Notes under the pieces: model-generated
Told to the model about the DNA's origin: nothing
The model's input: only the letters and a program-made list of their open reading frames with translations
The model's database searches: none
Assembly: GCA_038093975.1 (NCBI GenBank)
Contig: JBBPTG010000099.1
Coordinates: forward strand, 33,289 to 97,288
Direction of reading: 5' to 3'
Source of the DNA: Chalciporus piperatus
Lineage: Eukaryota > Basidiomycota > Agaricomycetes > Boletales > Boletaceae
Length of the DNA stretch: 64,000 bases
In this document: one piece after another, positions 6,150 to 50,979 of the stretch
Numbering within the stretch: the stretch's first letter is position 1
Layout of the letters: every line of letters starts with the position of its first letter
Translations under genes and position numbers: made by a program

Positions 6150-7367
6150 ATGGCCCGGACATGCCACACGTGTAAGGGCCACCCAGACAACAACGAAAAC
6201 CTCAAGCGTTGTACCGGCTGTCAAAAAGTCTTCTACTGCTCAACAGAATGTCAGAAGGATGATTGGATTCGTCATATATTCGACTGCAAACCACGCCGTC
6301 CCATCACCACCGCCGACTACCTTGCGTTAGCAGTTCACGACAACGTGTTTCCTGAGGACCGGCAGACCTGTGAAGATTACGGGTTTAATCGCTCAATCAC
6401 CTCAGAGGATCAGGGCAATGTGCTCGGTTTGTACATTGGTATGTTTGGTGCCTGGACCTACCTAGGTGGATCTTGCTCAATATGCATGTAGGCCTTATCA
6501 AATACTTGGATATTCCATCCAAGACCATCCACAACTGGCGGGTTGGTGGAGTCCTGGTGGAAGGGATAAAAGCTGCCTATTCCACGATCCCAGAACCTCT
6601 AAGAGACGAACACTTTTCGTGGTTCGTGCAAAACGAGAACTTGATTTCAGGCAAGCCTTCCGAGTCGTCTGGTCAGACGTTACGCGATCACGGAGGTGCC
6701 ATGCTGTTGCGCGCCTGGAGATTCATAGGAGGCAGCGAAAGAGATTCTGTCAAGGAGATCAACGCTGCCATCGCACGGAAAACTCCCCAGGAACGGGACT
6801 GCCTTTCGCTCTACACTCTCCTTTTATCAAATTGGCATCCACGTCCAGAACTTGACCTCTGGGTCGACTTCGGTTTTGCATCATACAGGTCGCAGGAAGA
6901 AGAAATGGAATTGGGTGGGCAGTACGAAGAGTTGATCAAGAGGTGCTCGTTTAAGGAGTTCTGCGACGCGTACCACCCTGTACCACCATGGTGGCTTGCT
7001 CGACCTCTTCCGTTCCAAAGGACTGCAGCTGTCTGCCAATCGCTACCTCCAGGACATCCTCACTGGGCGCGGAGGCTGGCCTAAGACAGTGTGGCACCTC
7101 AAGCAGTTTACGCGAGTCGATGAGACCGAGATGATGCCTTCGATTATCGTGGATTATGGTTTCATGAACTGCAAGGACGATTCCGAGAGGCGGCAGCTCA
7201 AGAGGGTGTACAAGGCTTTCTTCGAGACCCACGATGGAGATCCGTTGGCACTTCACGAGGCTTGCAGGCAAGGGAACATACATGGATTTCTTTCCGGGGT
7301 CGTGAAGGGTCTTCGAGATCCAAAGTTCCAACGCCTCATGAAAAACTCATACCCTCCAAAGATTTGA
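6150..7367 (+). pseudogene. MYND zinc-finger gene, copy A (frameshifted)
   Basis: Exon 1 (6150-6438) encodes a complete MYND finger: CHTC, CTGC, YC...C, then W..H...C. An intron (6439-6491) is in phase 1, and exon 2 starts at 6492 with LIKYLDIPSKTIHNW. At 6971-6990 the 10-mer TACCACCCTG precedes TACCACCATG, which sibling copies have once. The 10-bp insertion shifts the frame after FKEFCDAYH, and the original frame resumes from about 6990 to the stop at 7367. MYND fingers bind proline-rich peptides in partner proteins. The roughly 300-residue C-terminal region, with DYGF.NC and GDPLALHEAC, is conserved across copies but of unknown role. A sequencing error is the only alternative to a pseudogene. 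Confidence 0.85.
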
Positions 7368-36443: not shown

Positions 36444-37440
36444 CTTCCCCTTATTGGAGATCTCGTTGACAAACTGAAAGACGCTAAAGTCTTTACCAAG
36501 TTTGATGTACGATGGGGTTACAACAATGTCCGCATCAAAGACGGACATCAGTGGAAGGCCGCTTTCCTCACTCACAAAGGCCTCTTTGAACTGACTGTGA
36601 TGTTCTTTGAACTGAACAACTCCTCGGCCACCTTCCAAGTTTTTGGTTCAGTCCTTGAGAAGATATGCTTATTTTATTATATTACCATGATTATCATATG
36701 TTTTGGTGGATATAGCATTGGAATAGAGGTCAAGTTAAGTAAAATACAAGCAAATATGTAATCTCAGCAGTGCAAATTAACATGTGTATTTGAGTTGAGT
36801 TTGTCTCAATCAGTCATTTCATCAATTTACTTCAATATTCAGAAAGAAAGTCAAACAAGGTCGAAAAAATTTGTAAAAAAATCAGGAAAAATAGTGGTAA
36901 ATGACCATATATAGGTTATTATGTCTAACCAGTTATAACCAGTTTGTGTACAGTTTTGTAAAATTTTGGAAGTGACAAAACTGTAACTGAAACCAGACAT
37001 AACCAGTTACAATTTTTCACTCGGTTTCAGTTATATTTCACTCCAGTTAAGTTAAGTTTCGGTTTTTTTCCAGTTATGTAACTGGACTTTTAAACACTAC
37101 TTCCAACGCTTCATGAACGACTCTTTTAGAGACATGATAGCTGAAGGATGGCTCGTCATCTATATGGACGACCTTCTCATCTTTTCTCCCGACGACGCTA
37201 CTCACACTGCTCGCACGCAACGAGTCCTCAAACATATATGTAAGAACTAGATCTCCATCTTCATTTGGAAAAATGCAACTTTGCCGTAAACGAGGTAGAA
37301 TATCTTGGCATGATCGTCCGCCCCGGAGAGCTTGCCATGGTTTCCGTCAAACTTGACGGCATCCCTCAATGGCCCATTCCCACTACAGTTAAGGAAGTTC
37401 GCTCATTCCTTGGCTTCGCCAACTTCTACCGACATTTTAT
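36444..37440 (+). pseudogene. Ty3/gypsy reverse transcriptase remnant
   Basis: It reads [26 protein letters not shown], then, after a 461-bp insertion, RFMNDSFRDMIAEGWLVIYM and DDLLIFS (the RT catalytic YMDD). A frameshift and a TAG near 37248 follow, then LEKCNFAVNEVEYLGMI and VRSFLGFANFYRHFI. It stops at the terminal repeat of the KDZ-bearing unit at 37441. RT domain only; inactive. Confidence 0.88.
36639..37099. mobile_element. 461-bp AT-rich insertion (MITE-like) inside gypsy RT
   Basis: CTTCCAA at 36632-36638 is repeated at 37100-37106, and removing the insert plus one copy restores SATFQRFMN in the reverse transcriptase. The right end, read inward, is TAGTGTTTAAAAGTCCAG, similar to hAT ends. 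The left end (GTTTTTGGTTCAGTCC) matches it only weakly. AACCAGTTATAACCAG-type motifs recur inside. Confidence 0.7.
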
Positions 37441-37738
37441 CACTTCAGGCGACCCCTTTTGAAGGGCTGATAGCCTCTACTTTTCTTACCAGAAGAAGGG
37501 GCTAATAGCCCACTTTCCTGTGGGCGCTCCCATAGCTTTCCCACAGTATGTGGGAAAATGATTATTGAGCTATTTAGATGCAATATATCATTATGTCCCT
37601 GACTGATGGAAGTCCCACAGATCTTGCAAGGGATTCCCATGAACACCATGTGGGCTTCCCAAGTCACCATTAACATAAAGTAGCCAAAGCTATTTTTAGA
37701 CATTTCTGACCCTTGATGAGATTCTTGTGGGAGTCCCA
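37441..37738 (+). repeat. left terminal inverted repeat of the KDZ unit
   Basis: Matches the reverse complement of 49448-49724, with one extra stretch of about 22 bp near 37650 (a second TGGGCTTCCC-like copy). Confidence 0.92.
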
Positions 37739-38340
37739 CAATATGACAAACAATCTATTTCAATAAACATTTGAAAATCTTCAAGTTCCCAGCCTTTCGC
37801 AAGAGATTGATGGCCCATTAATGAATACACCACCAAATGAACAATGAATCTTTACAAGCCAAGAAAACTAGATATGATGTGCAAAGTGCCAACTCAAATG
37901 TTCCAAGATAGCATATTTCTAATATTTCTCATATTTTTGGTCATTTTGCCATATTTAGTAATGTCAAAGGAGAACAATAAATGCAACAGCATGTTTGAAC
38001 TTTGTATTTCCATGGAACAACTGTTTACTTGACTAAGTCGTACAGGATGCCACTTGGCTGAAGGTTCTACCCTAAGTTTTAACTCCAAGAATTCCAAGAA
38101 ACCTTTGGGTGACATACTGAACTTCAGAAGTACAATCTGATGCTTGCATTAGAAAGAAATGATTGATCAAGGCAAATCCCTCACGTGAATAAAATAAGCT
38201 CAGGTTGAACAGTGAGACACTTTGGAAGTCAACAAAAGACCTGAATGTCAGTTACAATGCAAAAGGGATACTCAGTCAAGATTAGTGGGCAGTCTCATTA
38301 GAAGCTCGCACAGAAGATAGAAGATGGGTAGAAGGCCCAA
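37739..38340. other. AT-rich interior of the KDZ unit, no gene
   Basis: No coding sequence with family resemblance. It separates the left terminal repeat from the satellite array. Confidence 0.4.
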
Positions 38341-38379
38341 TGTACTTCAGGGAGATCCCACTTGGTATGTATGAGAAGC

Positions 38380-39480
38380 CTCATATGATCAGGGTGACTT
38401 CCATTGGGGTTATGTGGGCGGCCCCATATGAGAGGGAGACTCCTGTTGGGCATATATGGGAAGCCCTATACACCTGATGCGAATCCTGCAGGGGATGTGG
38501 GAAGCCTATCTGACAAGGGGGGCTCCCACAGAGAATAAGTGGGAAGCCTTCTATTCCAAGGAGGAGTCCCACCAAGGATGTGTGGGATGCCCTATACACC
38601 CCATGGGACTCCCGCCGGGAAGTGTGGGAAGCCTTTTATCCCAAGGGGGAGTCCCTCCAAGGATATGTGGGATGCCTATATGCCAATGGGGAGTCCCAGC
38701 AAGGATGTGTGGGATGCCCTATATGTCCCATGGGACTCCCGCTGGGGAAGTGTGGGAAGCCTATATGCCAAGGAGGAGTCCCACCAAGGATATGTGGGAA
38801 GCCTTCTATTCCAAGGAGGAGTCCCACCAATGATGTGTGGGATGCCCTATAAACCCCATGGGACTTCCATGGGAGAAGTGTGGGAAGCCTTCTATCCCAA
38901 GTAGGAGTCCCACCAGGGATGTGTGGGATGCCCTATACCTCCCATGGGACTCCCGCATGGAAAGTGTGGGAAGCCTATATGCCAACGGGGAATCCCACCA
39001 AAGACATGTGGGAAGCCTTCTATCCCACAGGGGAGTCCCACGAAAGATATGTGGGAAGCCTTCTATCTCAAGGGGGAGTCCCACCAAGGATGTGTGGGAT
39101 GCCCCATATACCCCATGGGAATCCCGCATGGAAAGTGTGGGAAGCCTATATGCCAACGGGGAATCCCACCAAAGACATGTGGGAAGCCTTCTATCCCAGG
39201 GAGGAGTCTCACGAAAGATATGTGGGAAGCCTTCTATCCCAAGGGGGAGTCCCACCAAGGATGTGTGGGATGCCCCATACACCCCATGGGAATCCCGCAG
39301 GAGATGTGTGGGAAGCCTATATGACAAGATGGAGTTCCAACAAGGATGTGTGAGAAGCCTTATATGGCAAGAAAGAGACATGGATGCATGGGAGGACCTG
39401 TATACGACTCCCACTGAGGCTGTGTGGGAAGCTTTATATGCCAAGGGGAACCCCCAGTGAGGATGAGTGGGAAGCCCTAT
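38380..39480 (+). repeat. minisatellite with GGGAGTCCC palindromes (left subterminal array)
   Basis: Units of about 60 bp carry GTGTGGGAAGCCT, TATGCCAA and GGGGAGTCCCACCAAGGATG, alternating with CCATGGGACTCCCGC. More than fifteen units, with higher-order duplication of about 120-170 bp. The long ORFs in all frames are products of the array. Confidence 0.9.
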
Positions 39481-39830
39481 ATCAAAGGTGTGACTCTCAT
39501 CTGAGAAATGTGGAAAGCACCATATAATTACCAGATGACTGAGCCCAGGTGATGCTGCAATAAGTGTTGTCAAGATCACACAGATGTATTGGTTGTTAAA
39601 GTGTGATGCAGACACAAGGTTGGCAGTGTGTGAGCAATACACACTGATTGCCTGGGGTTTTATGAGCTCCTCCAAATGTGACAAAGAGTAAATAGAAGTC
39701 TTGGAAACTTGAAATCCATGTTAAGTTTACTTCTTCTCCAGACTCCCCTCAGAGCTATCCACATGTCCTCAAGGGATACCCACATGGCCTGAAGTCTGAT
39801 CATGGTCCATGGACTACCCACATTTCCTGA
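39481..39830. other. spacer between two satellite arrays
   Basis: No gene or repeat recognised. Confidence 0.35.
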
Positions 39831-40770
39831 GGGGATCTTCCCACATGTCACAATGGGAGTCCCATATAGCGCAGAGGGATTCCCACATGTCAGACAGGGA
39901 TGCCCATATATCCCAAAGGGATTCCCACATATTACGACGGGAGTCCCATACATGTGCAAGGGATTCCCACATGTCACGACGGGAGTCCCACATGTCAGAA
40001 TGGGAGTCCCATATAGCGCAGAGGGATTCCCACATGGCAGACAGGGATGCCCATATATCCCAAAGGGATTCCCACATATTACGACGGGAATCCCATACAT
40101 GTGCAAGGGATTCCCACATGTCACGACGGGTGTTACGAACGCTCAGTTCCTTATCCTAGTCTTTCCTAGACTTCACTACACTTACTACGTTTCTCTTTCA
40201 CTTTTGAACTTAGTCGCTTTCTCTCCCTTTTCTGTTATCTTATCTTATCAAGATCACATCACGTGACCTGCTGACATCAGCTAGGTCTAGCCTTTCGCTT
40301 ACGTAACGTGGCTGTGCGTGGCTGTGCACTTTCCCCACTGTCCATGACTCATACCGAGTCACCATGACTCAGACTCTTAATGACTCATTATGACTCACCG
40401 TGACTCATACTGACTCACGCTGACTCATCTCGCTTCCTAGTATACGCTACATATGGCTGTTACTCGCCATGACTCATATCTAGTCATACCTAGTCATATA
40501 GTTAAGGTTTAGCCCCAACATGTACAAACACTGTCAATAGTATATAAACCCGGGTTGACAAGCACGGCTCTCCAGTCTTGTTCTCCTGGAGTTTCCTCAT
40601 CGAACCTCAGCCAAGTACATCGGCTCGCTATTGTCTAGTGTGAGTCTTAGCTCTTAGTTGAGTTGAGTCGTTTCAACGGGAGTCCCACATTTCATAATGG
40701 GAGTCCCATATAGCACAGAGGGATTCCCATATGTCACAACAGGAGTCCCACATGCAAGTTATCCACATCT
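39831..40770. repeat. second minisatellite (GGGATTCCCACAT), split by a solo LTR
   Basis: Units such as CACGACGGGAGTCCCACATG and GCAGAGGGATTCCCACATG occupy 39831-40130 and resume at 40676-40770. The solo LTR at 40131-40675 lies between, with ACGGG duplicated on both sides. Confidence 0.9.
40131..40675 (+). mobile_element. solo LTR 1 (545 bp), target duplication ACGGG
   Basis: Starts TGTTACGAAC and ends CGTTTCA. ACGGG precedes it (40126-40130) and follows it (40676-40680). It contains eight TGACTCA heptamers in 40345-40476, a GTATATAAA TATA box near 40541, and a second copy at 40951-41543. No internal retroelement sequence remains, so it arose by LTR-LTR recombination. Drawn as plus because the TATA box is read that way. 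Confidence 0.95.
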
Positions 40771-40950
40771 CATATCAATAACTCAACCAAACAGGAACAC
40801 AGCACATTAGTGATTGTTGACTATCTACACAAGAATGGCAAGACTATGTACTCTACTCTTCACCGGAGTCCTCTGAATATGTGGCTTCATTGGATGGCCC
40901 CATCCCTGCATTGCCCATGGCCATGGGATAGTTGTAAGGAGGAGCAGGAC

Positions 40951-41543
40951 TGTTACGAACGCTCAGTTCCTTATCCTAGTCTTTCCTACACTTACTACGT
41001 TTCTCTTTCACTTTTGGACTTAGTCGCTTTCTCTCCCTTTTCTGTTATCTTATCTTATCAAGATCACATCACATGACCTGCTGACATCAGCTAGGTCTAG
41101 CCTTTCGCTTACATAACGTGGCTGTACGTGGCTGTGCATCTTCCCCACTGTCCATGACTCATACCGAGTCACCATGACTCAGACTCTTAATGACTCATTA
41201 TGACTCACCGTGACTCATACTGACTCACGCTGACTCATCTCGCTTCCTAGTCATATACGCTATTGGCTGTTACTCGCCATGACTCATATCTAGTCATACC
41301 TAGTCATATAGTTAAGGTTTAGCCACAACATGTACAAACACTGTCAATAGTATATAAACCCAGGTTGACAAGCACTGGCTCCCCAGTCTTGTTCTCCTGG
41401 AGTTTCCTCTTCTTGAACTTCATGGGCCAAGCGCTCCTGCTTGCCTAGTCTGATCCTCAGCTCTAGTTACTGAGTTGATGTGGTTTCGCTAGGGCATGTT
41501 GTCTGATGATAGCGCTAGCTCTTGATTGAGTTGAGTCGTTTCA
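40951..41543 (+). mobile_element. solo LTR 2 (593 bp), target duplication AGGAC
   Basis: Same family as solo LTR 1, with the same termini, the eight TGACTCA sites (41155-41286) and the TATA box. AGGAC lies at 40946-40950 and 41544-41548. It has inserted in the last coding exon of the minus-strand gene and supplies a premature TGA stop. Confidence 0.95.
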
Positions 41544-44527
41544 AGGACCATGAGGAGGTTGGTATGGTGGATACATCTGATTGTGATACATGGGCATAGG
41601 GGGGTACTGGTAAAACTGTGAATGTGCCGGATGCAACCATGGATTAGCAAGACCACCAGGTGGAGGCCCTGGAACAACAGATCGACCACGATGAACCTTG
41701 GAGCGGGATTTTACTCGTTCCCGAGGTGACTGTGTGGGAGCACGGGATCGAGGCCGAGTTGGGTTTGCAACAGTGCTGCGAGGCACCAGTGGACCAACAA
41801 CATCATCATCATCAGAGTCTGCCCGGTGAGGGAGTTGCAATGGACGAGCAGGCACAGCTTCAATATGCAGAGGAACAGCACGAGGAGCAGGGTGAGGTCG
41901 CAGAGGGGCAAGAGGAGGTGATGGAGTTGGGACTGGTGGTGGTTTGGGATTGGCTTCAGTGACATCAAGACCTTCCGACTCTGAATCATCAATCCAGCGC
42001 CTCACTCGGCGGCGTGGCTCGATAGGTTTCGAGGATGGACCAGCTGAGTGTTCACGTGTATCCTTGTCCACCTCGACACTCGCAGATCGCGCTCGCTTCT
42101 TCTTTCCTTTGCCCTTCTTGCTCGCAGTCGGCTTCAGGGAATTTCGAATGGAAGCGAGAATGTCGCCATGAGTGTCGATCACCAAGGGGATAGAACCCCA
42201 TGCAGTATCAGCAGGGGATATCGAGAGCTCAGCTATGATGTATTAGTTCTTGCCATGATGTTACACTTAACAATGCATACCTTGGTCCCATGAGACAATG
42301 TCGATCTCGTTCGCGACCTTGGCTTTCGCCTCTGAGTTCCGTTTATAGGCCTCCAGCATTCTTCGCAACGCACTGAGTCCCAGACTCTTAGCATCGCAAT
42401 TGATGCCTGGCACAAGTGACTCAGTGTCCCAGTTGACCAAGCGAACCTTCAACTCGATTGCCACCTCCAGCCACCGTGCCCAAGGAAAGGTTTGCCCTTT
42501 AATCTTGAGCGACGATCCACCCTGAAATGCCGCTGGAAGTATTTGAGTATTAGTCCACAGCTGCAACCCAATGTCCCTTACCTAGCTTTTTTACAAGGAT
42601 TTTGCTGAGACTTGTACGTGCACCATCCCGAGTTTTTGTGTGGATCTCGTGGGCAGCGAGACGAGGGGCTTGCCCAGACGGGTCAGCGGAACCAAGCAAG
42701 GATGTGAATGCACCGTGCAACAATGTTTGCCTCAATTCTTGAGCCCTAGGGACATTTAGTGCACCACTTCCATTATGCAACTGCCGACTTACTTAAAACA
42801 TGTTTTGAAGGTGTTGAGAATCTTCTTGGCAGGGATACCCACATTATCCAGTAGAAACTGCGCACGGCGACTGCCTCCAAAAAATGCTGAGCCTTTCCTC
42901 GCAACATCATCGACACCAGTGTAAATCATGGCACCAATAACTTCAACATCCTCGATATTTCTGTAGGCCGCAGCCTATAGGAGACTCAGCTGCAACACTC
43001 GAGAAGTTAGAATGGCGGAACATACCAGGGAGGAGAATTGCTTCCCTGCATTCTTTACGCGGAGTGCAGCACTCTGAGACCCAGTATCATTCTGCGGTTT
43101 GACCTCTAATTGTCTTCGGATCTCCGCCCTTTGCTCGTCGTTGGTTGTTACATCCCATGTCTTCTCCTTGAACATTCTATACTCCATGGCAATGCACTCC
43201 TCCCAATCCTTCTGGGATTCTGCAGAGATAATGGTCAGAATAGGTGGGTTGCCACTACATGAGCTACACACCTTCTAATGTCTTGGGTTGATCTTGCGCG
43301 AGGAAGGCGCGAAAGAGATTTACCAAGCTTGTTGCGCGCGCTTTGTGGGTAGCAATCCCAGCTTCTAGCAACACTGTGCGAGTGGTGCGTCCGATTTCTT
43401 GTGCTAATTCCTCAGCGCGTGCCAAGACTTGAGCCCCGAAGGCACGACATTCCTCCCGTTCCTCGTTTGTCATCGGACCATGCTTCATATCCCACATATC
43501 CCTCGTCAGGACGTCAACAGGGTCATCTTCGTGCGTGGGGGCCTCCGCTTCATCATCTTCGTTGTTGTTCCCGTTCTCTGCCTCCTCCTCTTGATCTCGC
43601 TCTGCCGTGTTATCCCTGTAGTCTGGGTCCCGATCGTCATCATCGCCTGGGAGATTTAATTCCTCACGGTCCGCTCGCCATTTTCCCTTTTCAAAAAAGC
43701 GATCGGGAGGAGTCTGTGAAACACTGATGTCAGCATGGACGATTGTGATCACCTAGGTTACAATTACCTCGTCATTATCATCCACCGCATCACTATTCTT
43801 CGCAGGCGAAGATTCAGGTGGCGGGGACAACGGAGGCAACGGGGACTTGGGTAATGGGGGTGGGGTATGCAATTCCTGTGCGCCGATGTAAACCTTCAGA
43901 CCATCCATCGATATGTTTTGACACATACCCTTATCGGTGTTCTTAATCCCGCCTCGGCTGCTGCATCATCGGCGTCTGGCGATATAAATCGGTTTGGATC
44001 ATCGAGCATTGGATCATTCCGAGGGGGTGGCTGTTCAGGATGGATGCTCTGTGATCTCATTATGGCATCCTGAACTTCATGGGATGCATCCTCAGCTGGA
44101 AGAGGATCCCCTGGCGGGGGCACGTCTGTGGCTTTGGCCGAGGAGGCCTTGATCGAGCGGGACGGCTTGTCAGTCATTGGGTCATTCTTCTGTGCAGATC
44201 GTGTCATCAATCGTTCATTTACTGTACAATCAACCTCACCTGCCCCGTGCGACGCTTCTTGCCTCGAGGAGGGCTGATCTTCTTCACTGGCGCTTCCTGT
44301 GCTTCATTTTCAGTGGTTGGGTCATTCTTCTGGGCAGTGAGTCATCAATCGTGGATTTACTGTACAATCAATCTCACCTTCAGTGTGCGACGCTTCTTGC
44401 CTCGAGGAGGCCCGATCTTAATACCTGGATCTTCCTGTCCTTCATTGGGGCTGGAGATCGACGGTGCATTTGCATCCAGACCATCTGCACCAAGAGCGGC
44501 CTTCGCGCGGCGGGTGAGAAGAACCAT
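41541..44527 (-). CDS. unknown KDZ-linked protein, divergent partner of the transposase
   Basis: ATG at 44527, with exons 44378-44527 and 44240-44329, a third beginning at 44189, then about six more down to 41541. Basic PPRGKKRRT appears twice through an exon duplication. Next are acidic and proline-rich stretches. A conserved-looking helical region follows with LTRDMWDMKHG, GRTTRTVLLEAGIATHKARA and DWEECIAMEYRMFKEK, then NIEDVEVIGAMIYTG and FPWARWLEVAIELKVRLVNW. The tail is basic and Pro/Arg-rich. Proteins of this type recur in agaric genomes, probably as transposon-borne genes, but I know no function. Nuclear location is inferred from the basic clusters. The present stop at 41541-41543 lies inside solo LTR 2. 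Without the LTR the frame runs on 22 codons to a TAG at 40853-40855. Middle exon borders are approximate. Confidence 0.72.
44200..44420 (-). repeat. tandem exon-plus-intron duplication in the KDZ-linked gene
   Basis: About 137 bp, holding the exon end PPRGKKRRT, the donor GTGAG(A/G)TTGATTGTACAG, a short intron and the acceptor before KNDP, occur twice in a row. Both keep reading frame and splice signals, so the duplication added a 30-codon exon. Confidence 0.88.
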
Positions 44528-44609
44528 CGGGCTGCTACGAAATTGGTAGTGAGCATGATGAATCAGTCGGTCGGTCTAGGCACGATACGCATCGTTGCCT
44601 TGCATCACT

Positions 44610-45127
44610 GTTCGACACGCGTCGAACGGGGGCGACCGAGACACTCGCGCCAGACACGCGTCTGACTGAGCATCACAGGGAAAGTAATAGATGGACCTAC
44701 TGTACAGTAGCAATGAGCGGAAGGAGTGGTATAGACGGGGAAGAATGGACGAGGGGTGAGACTGCAAAGCGGTTAGAGACAACTGAACGGGCAAAGGAGG
44801 ACGTACAATGGCGACAACACGGGATAATATTCGGAAGGAGGGTAGATGGTGAAGACTGGACGAGCGGCGAGACTGTAAAGAAGTGAGCGCAGATGGAACT
44901 CAATGGATGAACTTACTGGGAGGAGTGTTGTGACGGCAAAGATGTCTGGAGGAGCATTGAGACTGTAATGAAGTGAGCGCACACTGAAATCAGTGGATAA
45001 CTTACGATGGCGCGCCCTGGGAGGTCGAAGGATGGTGCAACGAAGCGCTTCGTGCACGAGCGAGTACAGCAGGACACGCGTCCTGCTATACTATGCTGAA
45101 GGAAGTAGTCCCAACACGCGTTGGGAC
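44610..45127. promoter_or_regulatory. four dyads sharing the core ACACGCGT
   Basis: GTTCGAC/GTCGAAC (44610-44627), CAGAC/GTCTG (44651-44664), AGCAGGAC/GTCCTGCT (45068-45087) and GTCCCAAC/GTTGGGAC (45108-45127) are perfect inverted arms around the same ACGC spacer. The arms differ in sequence; the core ACACGCGT is constant. ACGCGT is also the classical MluI cell-cycle box bound by MBF in yeasts. Function here is inferred. Confidence 0.75.
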
Positions 45128-45690
45128 TCGGAAGATGCTTGAGGGAGGTGGTGGTGGTGATGTGGTGTGTGGATGGAAAGAGATGGTGGACGAGGGAAAA
45201 CTGTGGACCGCTGTTTGGATGTTTTCCAAACTCCGCAGAAATACGCGGTTCCCCAGATTGGGTAGGTTGCCTAATCAAATGAAGTAACACATCTCTACCT
45301 AATTTGACAGCTTCACGTAAGTGTCATCGGAGTTTCAACTTAATCACCCAGCGGAGCTCAAACACTATTCTCTCCTTCGTCCTTCTTCTCTTCCATCCAC
45401 CACCACCACCACCACCGCTTCCCTCAAGCATCTTCCGAGTCCCAACACGTGTTGGGACTACTTCCTTCCGTATAGTATAGCAGGATGCGTGTCCTGCTGT
45501 ACTTGCTTGTGCATGAAGCGTTTTGTTGCACCATCCTTCGACCTCCCAGGGCGTGCCATCGTAAGTTATCCACTGATTTCAGTGTGCGCTCACTTCATTA
45601 CAGTCTCAACGCTCCTCCAGACATCTTTGCCGTCACAACACTCCTCCCAGTAAGTTCATCCATTGAGTTCCATCTGCGCTCACCACTCTT
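44880..45690. promoter_or_regulatory. inverted-repeat bidirectional promoter/leader of the KDZ pair
   Basis: About 300 bp at 44880-45180 are repeated inverted at about 45395-45684, around a 215-bp unlike centre. Each arm contains, outward: CCTCAAGCATCTTCCGAG, two 20-bp dyads, CCTCCCAGGGCG, and leader pieces GTAAGTTATCC...CATTACAG and CTCCTCCCAGTAAGTTCATCC that look like 5'-UTR introns. The plus arm leads directly into the KDZ ATG (45694), the minus arm toward the partner gene ATG (44527). Both genes thus start from copies of one leader. Confidence 0.82.
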
Positions 45691-45693
45691 ACA

Positions 45694-48600
45694 ATGTCCT
45701 TCTCTCGTCCGAGACTTTCTCGCAAGTCTAAGTCCACCTCACCTGTGAAGCCCTCCACATCCTCTGCCTTGGATGGAGCTCTCCCTTCTTCTACTTCTAG
45801 CTACCTCATCACTGGTGACATATCTCGTCAGTATTCCAGGCTCAAGAAGCAGGAGTCTTTTGTTCGCCCTGTCATGCACATTGCTGGTCAAAGCTATGGT
45901 CAAGGGCTTTTTAGACCCCCTTTGATCTCTCAGAAGTCTATGAAACCTTTCCTATCCTCCAGCTCGCCCTTTCCTTCCTTCCCTTCCAGTGACTCTCCTT
46001 CCTTCCCTTCCAGTGACACATCCTTCTTCCATTATGAAGATACCAGCACTCCAGTGCCTTCTTCCCCAAATAAGTATGGCAGTAAGAAAGCTCGGCAATG
46101 GGCTCGATGGCGTGATGAAGTCATCCCCAGCCTTGTTGACCCTTATCTGGCCTACCTGGCCTCTGCCACTTCTCAAGTCACCATACAGACATGTTCTTGT
46201 GGTGAAGCTCGAAAGCTTTCTATCTTGGTTGTTCACTTTGACAGTAAGCCCTCTGCTGTGCTTCCTTGTTGCTGCAATCTCATGGGCTGACACTGTCAAA
46301 CAGAGTTTGAGACAGTTACTCTATCTGTGTGCAAGTGTAATCCTGCAGCTTCTCAGCTTCTCAGCTTGGGTCTATTCCCATCTACTCCTCTTTTCCCCTC
46401 CCTTGCAGTCTCTATTTCTCTCTTGGAGTTCAATCGTGAATGCTTCCTCAGGATGCCTCCCAATGTTTCTGGATGGTGTGCAGCAGTGGAAGCCTTTTTG
46501 GAAAGCAGATCCATGTCTTCCTCCTTGGTATGTTCAATCCTATGTTCATGTGTTTCAAGATTTATTGACTTTGCATTCAGAAACCACTTCGTCGACATTA
46601 CGCCAATGCCTTTCATTGGTATATCTATCTTCATCAGACTACATCCATGCGTGTGGATGAAGCCCTCTCACTCGCGCGAGCTGAGACAATCAATTCCCAA
46701 TCTCCTTCTCAATACTTGCAATCTCGCTGTCCCATTTGTTTTGGTGGTGATCTTTGTCATGATGATTCTTCTCTGTGAGTTCAACACTTTGCTTTGCTTT
46801 ATTCTTTGTCTCATGCAGGTTGTTCCTCAAGGGTGGATTGTATTGTATGTTTGGATGCATGCTTTACACAGAAGAGAAGACATTCACCTAGGGATCCAAA
46901 ATGCCAGCATCCTGACTCAGTCTTTCTCTCAGAAGCCAAGGTCAAGCAGGCTGAGGATCTTGTTGCTAGCCTGCGTCAACCTCGAGGTAGACAGCCCCCT
47001 GCCGATGAAGTAGCACCAGGCATGCAGGTCTCCCCTGCTATTCTTCAGGAGTGTCATGATTCTTTCAAGGCTGCTGATGAACACAGAGTAAAAGCTAGCA
47101 CTCAGTTCTTCTCTGACACTGGGCTCATGGCTCTGTTGTGCCGCCATGATATTGTATTGTGGATGGTGAACATGACCACCCCTGGTGAAAGACAGCACTA
47201 TGCCCTGGCACTCCTGAAGGAGCTGTTGTCTCATCTACCCCAGTCCATGAAAGTTGGATTTTTATATGATATTGGCTGCCAGCTTCATCACAGCTGTGTC
47301 AAATGGGACTTTTTGGGGGAGGATCTGGCCAGAGTTTACTTTGGCATTTCTGTCTTTCATGCCTTTGCTCATAACTGGGCCTGCCAACTTGTTTATCATC
47401 CAAGGAAATGTTCTGGCTTTGGGCTTTCTGATGGTGAAGGTTGTGAGAGACTATGGAGTGGGCTCAAGAAATTGATACCCTCTTTGCGTGTTTCTGGTGT
47501 AAGTGCTTTCAGGGTTCATTTCCCAGGACAATAATTGAGTTTATTTGACAGTATCATCAACACCTATCTGTTCTTGATGCTCAAGTTCTGTTCTTGCAAG
47601 AGAAGTCCATGTCTAACTTGGGAGTGTGGATGGATTGCAAATGGACAAAGTGCCAACAGCGCATGTCAGAGGCCAAGGCTTGTCTTGTGGGTCAGGACTT
47701 GCAAACTTTGCAAGCTGCTTGGTCTGCTCAAGTAGCTGCTCAAACCAAAGCCCTGCCAAGTAAGTTTGTGGTATGTCATTTTGAGCCATTTTTGACTTTG
47801 AAATATTCTAGAGCAATCCAAGTCAAAAGGAGTTCAGGCTGTGGAGAAGGCACTTCTCTTGACAGAGAATGTTGCTGATCTCCAACAGCAAATCAAGACT
47901 CTGGAACATCAACTTACCCTCCCAGATAGTGATGTTACTGCTATCGATCTGGAGATACAAAGTGCCAAGCAGCATCTCACTACCATGAAATCTGCCTTGA
48001 ATACTTGTTTGACTGCTCTGGGGGTGGAAGAAACCCATCAGTTGAAGAAGTTGAAGAACAATGCCTATTTGCGGGATAGGATGAATGCTAGAGCCTTGAA
48101 GTATCGCATTCGGGAACGTCTTCGTTAAAGAAAGTTTGAATTTGACCGTTTGACACAGGAATATCGTCAAACTATCAATGGTATGCTTTTTTTAGTTAGT
48201 ATATTAAATACTCACCAGACTGTCTAGAGAAAAAACTTCACTCTCACACTCAGTCAGCCATTAGTCGCCGTGAGCCTGGTATCTTGGCCTTGGTTGCCAA
48301 GTACAATGCTCTCTGTGATAAAATGAGACATCATCTACATTAGGGACTTGCACCAAAGGGAGCAATTGTTCCTTTCAAGGTTCCCAAGGAGAGAGTCTGG
48401 AGTTTAGATGTGGATGATGAGGTTTGGCAGGATGTTGGTTTGGAAGATTATGATGGTTCAGAGGGAATTCCTAACTGGCTTGGTGATGAAAAGATCAGTC
48501 AAGGTATAAAAGCTATGCTTGAGCTTGATCGTTGCATGGAAGAAGAAGCAAGACTTCAGAGAGAAAGAGCTGCTATGCAAAGCTGGATGCATAAAGAATG

Positions 48601-49041
48601 GAATGTGGTGTTGAAGGCACTTGAAGATACAGGTTTTTCTGTTCATTGATCTCCTTGTGAATGATGGTTGACAATGTCTCAGACAATGTTGCTATGCAAT
48701 ACCAACTTGAATTGCATAGGAAGAAGCTTCTTTAACTTTGTGCTCTTTGGCAGAAAGGTGTTGAGGATATACCTGGTTCACATGTTACTGGTGTATCATG
48801 GGGTCCTTCCATCTTACAGATTACTGCTATGCAGTCCAATATCCCACAGGAGATGGAAAAGAATGATGACCTGAGCTCCTCAGACTCTGAAGATGACAAT
48901 GTTGAGGATGCTGAAGTGATTGATTTGATAGAGGACTTTGGATTATTGAGTCATGGAGTGGACCCCTTGGAAGAAGACATAGAGGGTTCTTTGCATGGTG
49001 CTGATCTTTACATTGGGAGAAAAAGACATCGAGTAGAGTAA
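45694..49041 (+). CDS. KDZ transposase with CxC1-like cysteine cluster (C-terminal stops)
   Basis: Exon 1 is 45694-46243 and exon 2 begins at 46304. Their junction builds a cysteine cluster, CSCGEAR...VHFDKFETVTLSVCKC, then LGLFPSTPLFPSLA, typical of CxC1-like domains attached to KDZ transposases. After two or three introns comes ICFGGD and IVCLDACFTQKR, then the KDZ core: FFSDTGLMALLCRHD, then GFLYDIGCQLHHS, then SVFHAFAHNWACQLVYHPRK and GLSDGEGCERLWSGLKKL. This supplies the expected acidic residues. A coiled-coil tail follows. The tail has in-frame TAA (48126-48128), TAG (48341-48343) and TAA (48733-48735), with conserved-looking frame beyond each, ending at 49041. KDZ enzymes move large DNA elements in fungi. 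The core is intact; loss of the tail may inactivate this copy. Confidence 0.85.
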
Positions 49042-49447
49042 ATATTCTATCCTATGTCCATAAATGTGTTAGCTTGCAAATGTTGAGAAATACAAGCACT
49101 TTCATGTGGAAATGCAATTAGACCTGAAATATGGGACATTCACTGACTAAATGGGAACCCCAGCCCTCTATAGTGGGACACCCCCTCAACATATGGGCCT
49201 CACAATATTCTATGGTGGGACTCCTTCAACATCAAGTGGGAATCCCAGCCGTCTATAGTGGGACACCCCCTCAACATATGGGCCTCCCAATGCTCAGCAT
49301 GGGACTGCTCCAACAATGGATGGGACTTCCATATTCATAAACTCAATTACCACTCCACCAACCGCAAGATTACATAATATTGCATAATATTTCTTTGGAA
49401 TATTATTAATTAGTTCATCAATGATGAGCGATTTTGTTGACTGATTG
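49042..49447 (+). repeat. right subterminal repeats of the KDZ unit
   Basis: CCTCTATAGTGGGACACCCC and CTCAACATATGGGCCTC occur twice, with TGGGAATCCCAGCC and GTGGGACTCC between. The same palindromic GGGAnTCCC theme as the left arrays. Confidence 0.75.
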
Positions 49448-49724
49448 ATGGGACTCCCACAAGAATCTCACCAAGGGTCAGAAATGTCTAAAAATAGCTT
49501 TGGCTACTTTATGTTAATGGTGACTTGGGAATCCCTTGCAAGATCTGTGGGACTTCCATCAGTCAGGGACATAATGATATATTGCATCTAAATAGCTCAA
49601 TAATCATTTTCCCACATACTGTGGGAAAGCTATGGGAGCGCCCACAGGAAAGTGGGCTATTAGCCCCTTCTTCTGGTAAGAAAAGTAGAGGCTATTAGCC
49701 CTTCAAAAGGGGTCGCCTGAAGTG
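49448..49724 (-). repeat. right terminal inverted repeat of the KDZ unit
   Basis: Reverse complement of 37441-37738, ending ...GGGGTCGCCTGAAGTG at 49724. Confidence 0.92.
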
Positions 49725-50272
49725 TGGGCGAGCACGTCGATCTGGAAGTAGGCTTTGACCAGATTGCTAAATTCGACCCAATCAGGCCATGCTGCTATGC
49801 CCATGGGACCACATGGTCTGTCCCGCTCTTCTCGTGCCTCTGCTTCCGTCGGCATAATGAGGGGAGGCAGCGGCCTCAATTCTCGACATGACAACTCCTC
49901 TATTGTTATCTGAGCAAACCTGGCTGCTTTTCCCTCGAGACGTGAGAGAACTGCCAAGCTGCGGACCTTGTTGTTTTTCCATGTATCGACAGACTGCCAG
50001 GCATTCACCTGCGCCCACCACAAACATAACTTGGTGCGGTCACCATACCATTTCCCAGGGTCGGCAACCTTTTTGGACACGGAGTCCGAATTGTCTGAAA
50101 TGAGCGCCTTCAGAGCGGCGGTGAGAACAGCGATGGGATCAGCGGAATCTGCCATCGGAGTTTCGGGATGAGGAGTAGGGGGATGAGAGCTTTCGGATGA
50201 GGATGGAAGATGACGTGGGGGAGATCTGTAACCTTGAGCTTGTGGTTCCTGATCGTATAGCTCTGCTGACAT
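49725..50272 (-). pseudogene. Ty3/gypsy gag, N-terminal part
   Basis: ATG at 50272. It reads a Pro/Ser-rich head, then DPGKWYGDRTKLCLWWAQVN, WPDWVEFSNLVKAYFQID, a gypsy gag-like pattern. It enters the KDZ terminal repeat at 49724 and stops. Upstream 50273-50979 is its leader and lies next to a minus-oriented LTR, so this is the 5' end of a minus-strand element whose remainder is missing. Confidence 0.75.
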
Positions 50273-50979
50273 ATATCTTTACTGAACCCTATCTTCCAAA
50301 GGTTCTCTGGGGATGACAGACACGAGGACGAAGGAAATATTTCTTTGAGCGGAGATAATATCTGCGATGCTTATTGGAATCTTTGCAGACCTTCTGAGGA
50401 ATTTTCCCAAGATCTGTTTGGATTTTACACATGCACTACTCTCGAACTTCTATCTTCGAGCAGCAGCAAAGAGCTATTGTAATACAATATATTTATTTCT
50501 GTTTTCTATTTTTTGTACCTCGGCGGTGCTGCCGGCTTACGTTTCCTACGTATGACTCAGCCAAGGGGGCGGCGATGCGCTTTTCCCTTGTCGTCCTTCG
50601 CAATTGGGCACGACCCCAACTCGGTCTTCGAACAAAATACTATAGTACTGAGGGTAACAGAGACGGGGCACTAAAGGCTGGCCCAAACGAAATGAAAAGC
50701 CAAAAGGCGAATGTGTGACGTCAACAGGTGATCACACGAACCTGGGTTGTGTCTACGGTCAGAGGGCTAGCGTGTGAGCGGACCCCAAGACGTCTCGAAC
50801 AACCAAAGAGCCCCTAGTGCACTATGGGGTGAAGCAACATTATCCTTATTGACGGCGGACGACCGTATAATCAACAGTGGACGGAGTTGTTGTCTCCTGC
50901 GTGTCACGTACGCGAACGATGCTTCTGGATCAACTCTTTGGCCCTAGAGTCTGGGCGGTGTGTTCAAGTCTAATCCAAG
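50273..50979 (-). other. leader of the minus-strand gypsy element, no gene
   Basis: Lies between the LTR end and gag. Just inside the LTR, read on the minus strand, is CTTGGATTAGACTTGAACAC, a possible tRNA primer-binding site beginning TGG. Confidence 0.5.

What the first reader, a model, noticed from the sequence alone, without database searches (positions are those of the whole stretch)
37441..49724. KDZ-bearing unit with two divergent genes started by one duplicated, inverted leader
Seen: 280-300-bp terminal inverted repeats, a KDZ transposase with CxC1-like cluster (plus), and a second multi-exon gene (minus). The two are separated by about 300-bp inverted arms carrying matching leader and intron-like pieces. 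Known: KDZ transposons are expanded in Agaricomycetes and associate with varied accessory genes. Inferred: the minus gene is a co-regulated accessory protein of the element, perhaps for DNA binding or host chromatin. I know of no description of this pair with a palindromic bidirectional leader.
Basis: partly seen in the sequence, partly recalled or inferred. Interest (0 to 1): 0.75.

Follow-up and report, generated by a model that had tools for sequence, protein, structure and literature searches.

The report
KDZ transposon rearranged beside shared leader
A mushroom-type jumping gene carries two extra genes that start back to back from mirrored copies of one leader, and in this copy a deletion seems to have removed one of them and put the transposase gene in its place.

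Summary
The anatomy is real: about 300-bp terminal inverted repeats, a KDZ/CxC1 transposase gene (+), an 844-aa multi-exon gene A (-), and between them 280-nt inverted arms, 95% alike, with matching leader introns. The interpretation needs correcting. In two related copies in the same genome (C13, C216) the plus-side arm leads not into KDZ but into a third gene, B, and KDZ follows B with its own upstream DNA. Measured against C13, the window copy lacks 3,079 bp (B plus the KDZ upstream region), which places the arm 10 bp before the KDZ start codon. Native layout: A <- mirrored leader -> B, then KDZ. B has relatives in Boletus and Paxillus, and the Boletus protein model runs on into a KDZ N-terminus, so B-KDZ adjacency extends beyond this genome. 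The window KDZ has nonsense codons. The window's left end pairs with contig C402 as one insertion (8-bp target duplication), so the apparently complete element joins two insertions or is an assembly chimera. Co-regulation of A and B is inferred; there are no expression data. New variant of a known kind.

The parts
37441..37738 (+). left terminal inverted repeat, terminus 5'-CACTTCAGG
   Evidence: CACTTCAGG at all 10 ends that one search found (one, C219, differs at the next base)
37433..37440 (.). 8-bp target duplication CATTTTAT; its partner is at contig C402, not at the window's right end
   Evidence: 8 of 8 match, best of 45 end pairs; joining the flanks restores an open frame that I recognise from memory as Ty3/gypsy pol
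38452..39365 (.). subterminal tandem array, about 43-bp unit, rich in TGGGA/TCCCA half sites
39832..40130 (.). subterminal 21-bp array with GGGANTCCC quasi-palindromes, continuing at about 40676-40753
40131..40675 (+). solo LTR inserted in the 21-bp array (5-bp duplication ACGGG)
40951..41543 (+). solo LTR inserted in the 3' end of gene A (5-bp duplication AGGAC); supplies the present stop codon and cuts off 30 residues
41541..44527 (-). gene A: 10 exons, open 844-aa frame, no Pfam match
44873..44916 (-). gene A leader intron 2 (GTAAGT..ACAG), predicted
   Evidence: sequence read; alignment
44963..45005 (-). gene A leader intron 1 (GTAAGT..ACAG), predicted
   Evidence: sequence read; alignment
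44883..45162 (-). leader arm on the gene A side
45163..45403 (.). spacer between the arms
45404..45683 (+). leader arm on the plus side; precedes gene B in C13 and C216
45561..45603 (+). plus-side leader intron 1, predicted; the donor of the second intron (45650) has no usual acceptor before the KDZ ATG
   Evidence: sequence read; alignment
45683..45684 (.). deletion junction: gene B and the KDZ upstream region (3,079 bp as measured in C13) are missing here
   Evidence: window 45683 and 45684 correspond to C13 local positions 2422 and 5502
45694..48649 (+). KDZ transposase gene with CxC1 cluster, 7 exons modelled; two nonsense codons (exons 6 and 7). The open frame 48736-49041 is probably its last exon (not resolved)
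49149..49291 (.). right subterminal TGGGA/TCCCA-rich repeats
49449..49724 (-). right terminal inverted repeat, ends ...CCTGAAGTG

Best explanation
This is a copy of a KDZ-superfamily DNA transposon whose native gene order is: TIR, subterminal GGGANTCCC repeats, gene A (minus), inverted duplicated leader, gene B (plus), KDZ transposase (plus), subterminal repeats, TIR. The mirrored leader gives A and B the same start region (short leader exons, introns and hairpins), so they are probably expressed together; KDZ natively has its own upstream region. In the window copy a deletion of about 3.1 kb removed B and the KDZ upstream region and joined the B-side arm to the KDZ start codon. Shown: the layouts, the breakpoints, splice-site conservation, B-KDZ adjacency, TIRs and the 8-bp duplication. 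Inferred: transcription and splicing of the leaders, co-expression of A and B, a helper role for B in transposition, and a nuclear role for A (only from its basic motifs).
For: Leader pair at 4 loci (C99, C13, C170, C216), each beside gene A or its first exon. C13 and C216 share about 1.5 kb of leader and gene B DNA running on from the plus-side arm, and a further 863-column match that runs into the KDZ gene. Window homology to C13 stops at window 45683 and resumes at window 45684 after 3,079 bp of C13. B lies upstream of KDZ on the same strand at C13 (two copies), C216 and the diverged C332: 4 of the 5 B loci found, C178 being the exception. Boletus edulis P0001 (45% identity over 97% of the B query) ends in a KDZ N-terminus (27 of 39 identical, E=6e-16). 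Leader splice sites: ACAG acceptor of intron 1 in 7 of 7 full arms, GTAAGT donors of introns 1 and 2 in 6 of 7 each. 8-bp target duplication.
Against: No transcript data. The deletion and the mixed ends rest on one assembly; a chimera cannot be excluded, although by eye the junction has at most 4 bp of shared sequence. B in C13 has an in-frame stop and one exon junction that I could not resolve; B in C216 is rearranged by an inversion. None of the copies examined has A, B and KDZ all intact, so the native layout is put together from decayed copies. C178 carries a B fragment about 20 kb from the nearest KDZ hit. The Boletus fusion could be a gene-model artefact or a true fused protein.
Confidence: 0.75

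Rival explanations
1. The window arrangement is native: KDZ and gene A are a co-regulated pair sharing one duplicated leader.
For: In the window the arm ends 10 bp before the KDZ ATG and the KDZ domain is preserved.
Against: C13 and C216 have gene B in that place, and KDZ upstream DNA shared with C427; in the window the second leader intron has lost its usual acceptor and KDZ has nonsense codons.
Confidence: 0.07
2. The junction of arm and KDZ, and the mixed ends of the element, are assembly errors between near-identical copies, so the window element does not exist as such.
For: The left end pairs with C402 (8 of 8) while the right end has a different flank; other copies are 96-99% identical to the window over long stretches.
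Against: No N runs in the window; at the arm-KDZ junction I see at most 4 bp of shared sequence, too little for an overlap misjoin. Ectopic recombination between copies would give the same mixed ends.
Confidence: 0.15
3. The inverted arms are not gene leaders but a separate fold-back element inserted between genes.
For: They form a near-perfect palindrome, and two of three leader stretches fold better than 200 of 200 shuffles (z -5.9 and -4.9; the third z -2.0, 9 of 200 as good).
Against: The arms were found at only 4 loci, each at the gene A start, with splice sites conserved in place. A target duplication for such an insertion was not sought.
Confidence: 0.03

Closest known systems
KDZ1, KDZ2 and KDZ3 of Cryptococcus neoformans (PMC12810828; passages seen)
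   Same: KDZ plus CxC1 transposase; about 11, 9.2 and 10 kb; TIRs of 241, 139 and 169 bp; 8-bp duplications (4-8 bp for KDZ2 and KDZ3)
   Different: The passages seen mention only the transposase; I saw no accessory gene pair or inverted leader there (figures are not held). Those elements are shown to move; this one is not.
Kyakuja elements of Agaricomycetes carrying TET/JBP (PMC12730594; abstract, sections 11 and 18 and passages seen)
   Same: KDZ superfamily; CA..TG termini; an extra gene beside the transposase
   Different: Kyakuja there has 7-bp duplications, no TIRs and a TET/JBP gene; this family has an 8-bp duplication, about 300-bp TIRs and genes A and B. In this genome 16 of 25 TET/JBP hits over cut-off lie within 5 kb of a KDZ locus; none of these is on C99, C216, C287, C402, C332 or C13, and the one on C427 is 7.8 kb away.
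Zisupton and Dileera (PMC12730594, same parts)
   Same: 8-bp duplications; TIRs for Zisupton
   Different: Transposase phylogeny not tested here; genes A and B are not mentioned in the parts seen.
KDZ elements of Marasmius oreades (PMC8290104) and Agaricus bisporus (PMC7473861), passages seen
   Same: KDZ groups listed as common DNA elements of mushroom genomes; TIR motifs said to be in a supplementary figure for M. oreades
   Different: Supplements not seen; no accessory genes described in the passages.
Boletus edulis hypothetical protein L210DRAFT_3647701 (P0001)
   Same: Gene B homologue directly followed by a KDZ N-terminus
   Different: Annotated as one fused protein; in C13 the B and KDZ frames are separate.

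Membership tests
KDZ superfamily | KDZ transposase domain PF18758 | tested here: met
   209.3 bits against cut-off 26.6
KDZ superfamily | CxC cysteine cluster N-terminal to the domain | tested here: met
   CxC1 38.5 bits against cut-off 26.9
KDZ superfamily | TIRs and 8-bp target duplication, as in Cryptococcus KDZ1 | tested here: met
   TIRs; CATTTTAT 8 of 8 across C99-left and C402. The window's own two ends share no duplication.
Kyakuja | 7-bp duplication, CA..TG termini, no TIRs (PMC12730594) | tested here: not met
   CA..TG met; 8-bp duplication and TIRs present
Zisupton or Dileera | position in the transposase tree | not tested
   no reference transposases were to hand
TET/JBP-carrying transposon | TET/JBP gene within the element | tested here: not met
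   no PF12851 match on C99, C216 or C287; C427 has one 7.8 kb from its truncated KDZ

The most novel reading that the evidence does not exclude
A lineage of KDZ transposons in mushroom fungi carries a cassette of two accessory genes driven by one leader duplicated as a mirror image, kept alike by gene conversion and carrying hairpins with a common AC-GCGU-GU tip but different stems; this leader co-regulates proteins needed with the transposase, and deletions can hand it to the transposase itself.
Probability: 0.3. Interest if true: 0.6.

Novelty: new variant of a known kind. Interest (0 to 1): 0.42.

Why it matters
KDZ elements are common in mushroom genomes, and in the papers seen here the extra gene discussed is TET/JBP. 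Gene B, adjacent to KDZ here and in Boletus, is a concrete candidate for a protein that works with the transposase. The mirrored leader is a simple way to give two divergent genes one control region, and its homogenisation can be tested by comparing copies.

Tried and rejected
Rejected: KDZ as the native partner of the leader. Rejected: the direct repeats at 40131 and 40951 as part of the element's genes; they are two solo LTRs with their own 5-bp duplications. Led nowhere: homologue searches with gene A (none among the 7,993 candidates scored, a capped list; none among 3,002); Pfam with A and two B pieces; solved-structure sequence searches with P0001 and the core of A; structure prediction of P0001 from a 3-row alignment (mean pLDDT 31, so no fold search was run); viral contigs with B (57 pattern matches, none confirmed); Rfam on 37000-50500 (none). 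One search, a palindrome scan, used the wrong centre and missed the hairpins. One search was off by one base for the window's left end and was redone. Inverted repeats of 80 nt or more within 3 kb were sought in 14 stretches at other KDZ loci: 11 had none; L015, L016 and L020 had some that I did not follow, so mirrored leaders at other KDZ families are not excluded. No tree of the arms or of the transposases was built.

Full report
Observation. Terminal inverted repeats run 37441-37738 and 49449-49724; the leader arms 44883-45162 and 45404-45683 are 280 nt, 95% complementary and 241 nt apart, far beyond chance. The + gene is a KDZ transposase with a CxC1 cluster. The - gene, A, has ten exons and an open 844-aa frame, with no Pfam match. 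The genome is held as G000 (35.5 Mb, 484 contigs, unnamed); the window is C99:33289-97288.

What the other copies show. The leader pair was found at four loci: C99, C13, C170 and C216. In C13 and C216 the plus-side arm runs on into a third gene, B, and the KDZ gene follows B. In C13 the last B frame ends at C13:312846 and the KDZ start codon is at about 313075. In C13, C216 and C427 the DNA just before the KDZ start is shared among them and differs from the window. Window homology to C13 breaks at window 45683 and resumes at 45684 after 3,079 bp of C13. The window is therefore best read as a deletion derivative: B and the KDZ upstream region are gone and the B-side arm lies 10 bp before the KDZ ATG at 45694. 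The second leader intron keeps its donor (45650) but has lost its usual acceptor (sequence). In C170 the B-side arm is cut short, and no KDZ hit was found on that contig.

Gene B. The search gave three relatives: Boletus edulis (45% identity, 97% of the query), Paxillus rubicundulus (36%, 97%) and one unnamed protein (48%, 63%); only the 7,996 candidates sharing most words were scored. The Boletus model ends with a stretch 27 of 39 identical to the KDZ N-terminus of this element, which I read as a gene model that ran from B into KDZ, though a true fusion is possible. In this genome B lies just upstream of KDZ, on the same strand, at 4 of the 5 B loci found: C13 twice, C216 and the diverged C332. 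At the fifth, C178, the nearest KDZ hit is about 20 kb away. Gene A, or its first exon, was found at six loci (C99, C216, C13, C170, C219, C176), three beside KDZ; C219 also has a TIR of this family.

The arms. Identity between the two arms of a copy is 95.0% in C99, 95.0% in C13 and 84.1% in C216. The gene A-side arm of C99 is 84.4% like its counterpart in C216 and 97.1% like that of C13. Since C216 also has the pair, the duplication came before the split from C216, so the arms of the C99/C13/C170 group, 90-97% alike in all comparisons, have probably been homogenised after it. Against very recent conversion, the A-side arms of C99 and C13 are closer to each other than the two arms of either copy. 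This rests on identities; no tree was built. The leaders carry hairpins with a common tip and different stems.

Ends. All ten ends found start CACTTCAGG. Of 45 end pairs, C99-left and C402 match 8 of 8 (CATTTTAT), and joining their flanks restores an open frame that I recognise from memory as Ty3/gypsy pol. The next best pair (C124, 7 of 8) points outward on one contig and is unexplained; the third best pairs match 4 of 8. C402 carries the right part of the element. The window's two TIRs thus come from different insertions, joined by recombination or by assembly.

Decay. The window KDZ has two nonsense codons before the end of my model; the C402 copy, which covers exons 5-7 only, lacks them; C287 has a 1-base gap in exon 6, C216 a stop in exon 3 and several gaps, and C13 a 1-base gap in exon 1. 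A solo LTR cuts off the last 30 residues of A.

Comparison. Cryptococcus KDZ1 is about 11 kb with 241-bp TIRs, 8-bp duplications and a KDZ plus CxC1 transposase (PMC12810828, passages). Kyakuja has 7-bp duplications and no TIRs (PMC12730594, abstract, sections 11 and 18 and passages), so this family is not Kyakuja by those features. In this genome another set of KDZ loci has TET/JBP genes nearby: 16 of 25 TET/JBP hits over cut-off lie within 5 kb of one of 61 KDZ loci (75 hits merged). Nothing in the listings (capped at 20 of 65 and 30 of 227), nor in the parts seen of four papers, mentions an A/B cassette or a mirrored leader. Iyer et al. 2014 is not held, and supplements were not seen, so it may be described there.

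Verdict. Real structure, corrected reading: the mirrored leader belongs to A and B, and the KDZ link in the window is secondary. A new variant of a known kind, of moderate interest.

Noticed in passing
window 44610-44627, 45068-45087, 45107-45128, 45438-45459; C13 local 2720-2741, 2750-2773, 2776-2799: Leader hairpins of 18-24 bp with different stems but a shared AC-GCGT-GT tip (or a one-base variant); those whose strand is unambiguous are in sense orientation in both leaders. 129 kb from 13 other KDZ stretches had no GCGT-loop match (one ATGT/ACAT-loop sequence only); against leader-only use, one GCGT hairpin lies inside the KDZ gene of C13 (local 6459-6476).
   Followed up: partly
window 37441-40140, 40141-41540 and 49041-49724: GGGANTCCC quasi-palindromes: all 31 in the window lie inside the element, 25 in 37441-40140, 3 in 40141-41540 and 3 in 49041-49724; TGGGA/TCCCA half sites are dense near both ends. 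Possible transposase binding sites.
   Followed up: partly
window 40131-40675 and 40951-41543: Two solo LTRs of one family with 5-bp duplications ACGGG and AGGAC; similar sequence lies near KDZ loci on C163 and C216.
   Followed up: yes
G000:C124:8149 and C124:22620: Two element ends facing away from each other share a 7-of-8 flank match, as if one insertion were turned inside out on the contig.
   Followed up: no
window 44203-44308 and 44341-44446: Tandem duplication in gene A of an exon part plus intron (138-bp unit), giving two PPRGKKRRT basic motifs.
   Followed up: no
L020:4564-7768 (C75): Long inverted repeats (724 and 492 nt, 100% complementary) about 5 kb upstream of another KDZ gene.
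   Followed up: no
G000, whole genome: TET/JBP genes over cut-off lie within 5 kb of a KDZ locus in 16 of 25 cases; of the 16, 14 are on the opposite strand and 10 lie 1.3-1.6 kb away.
   Followed up: partly
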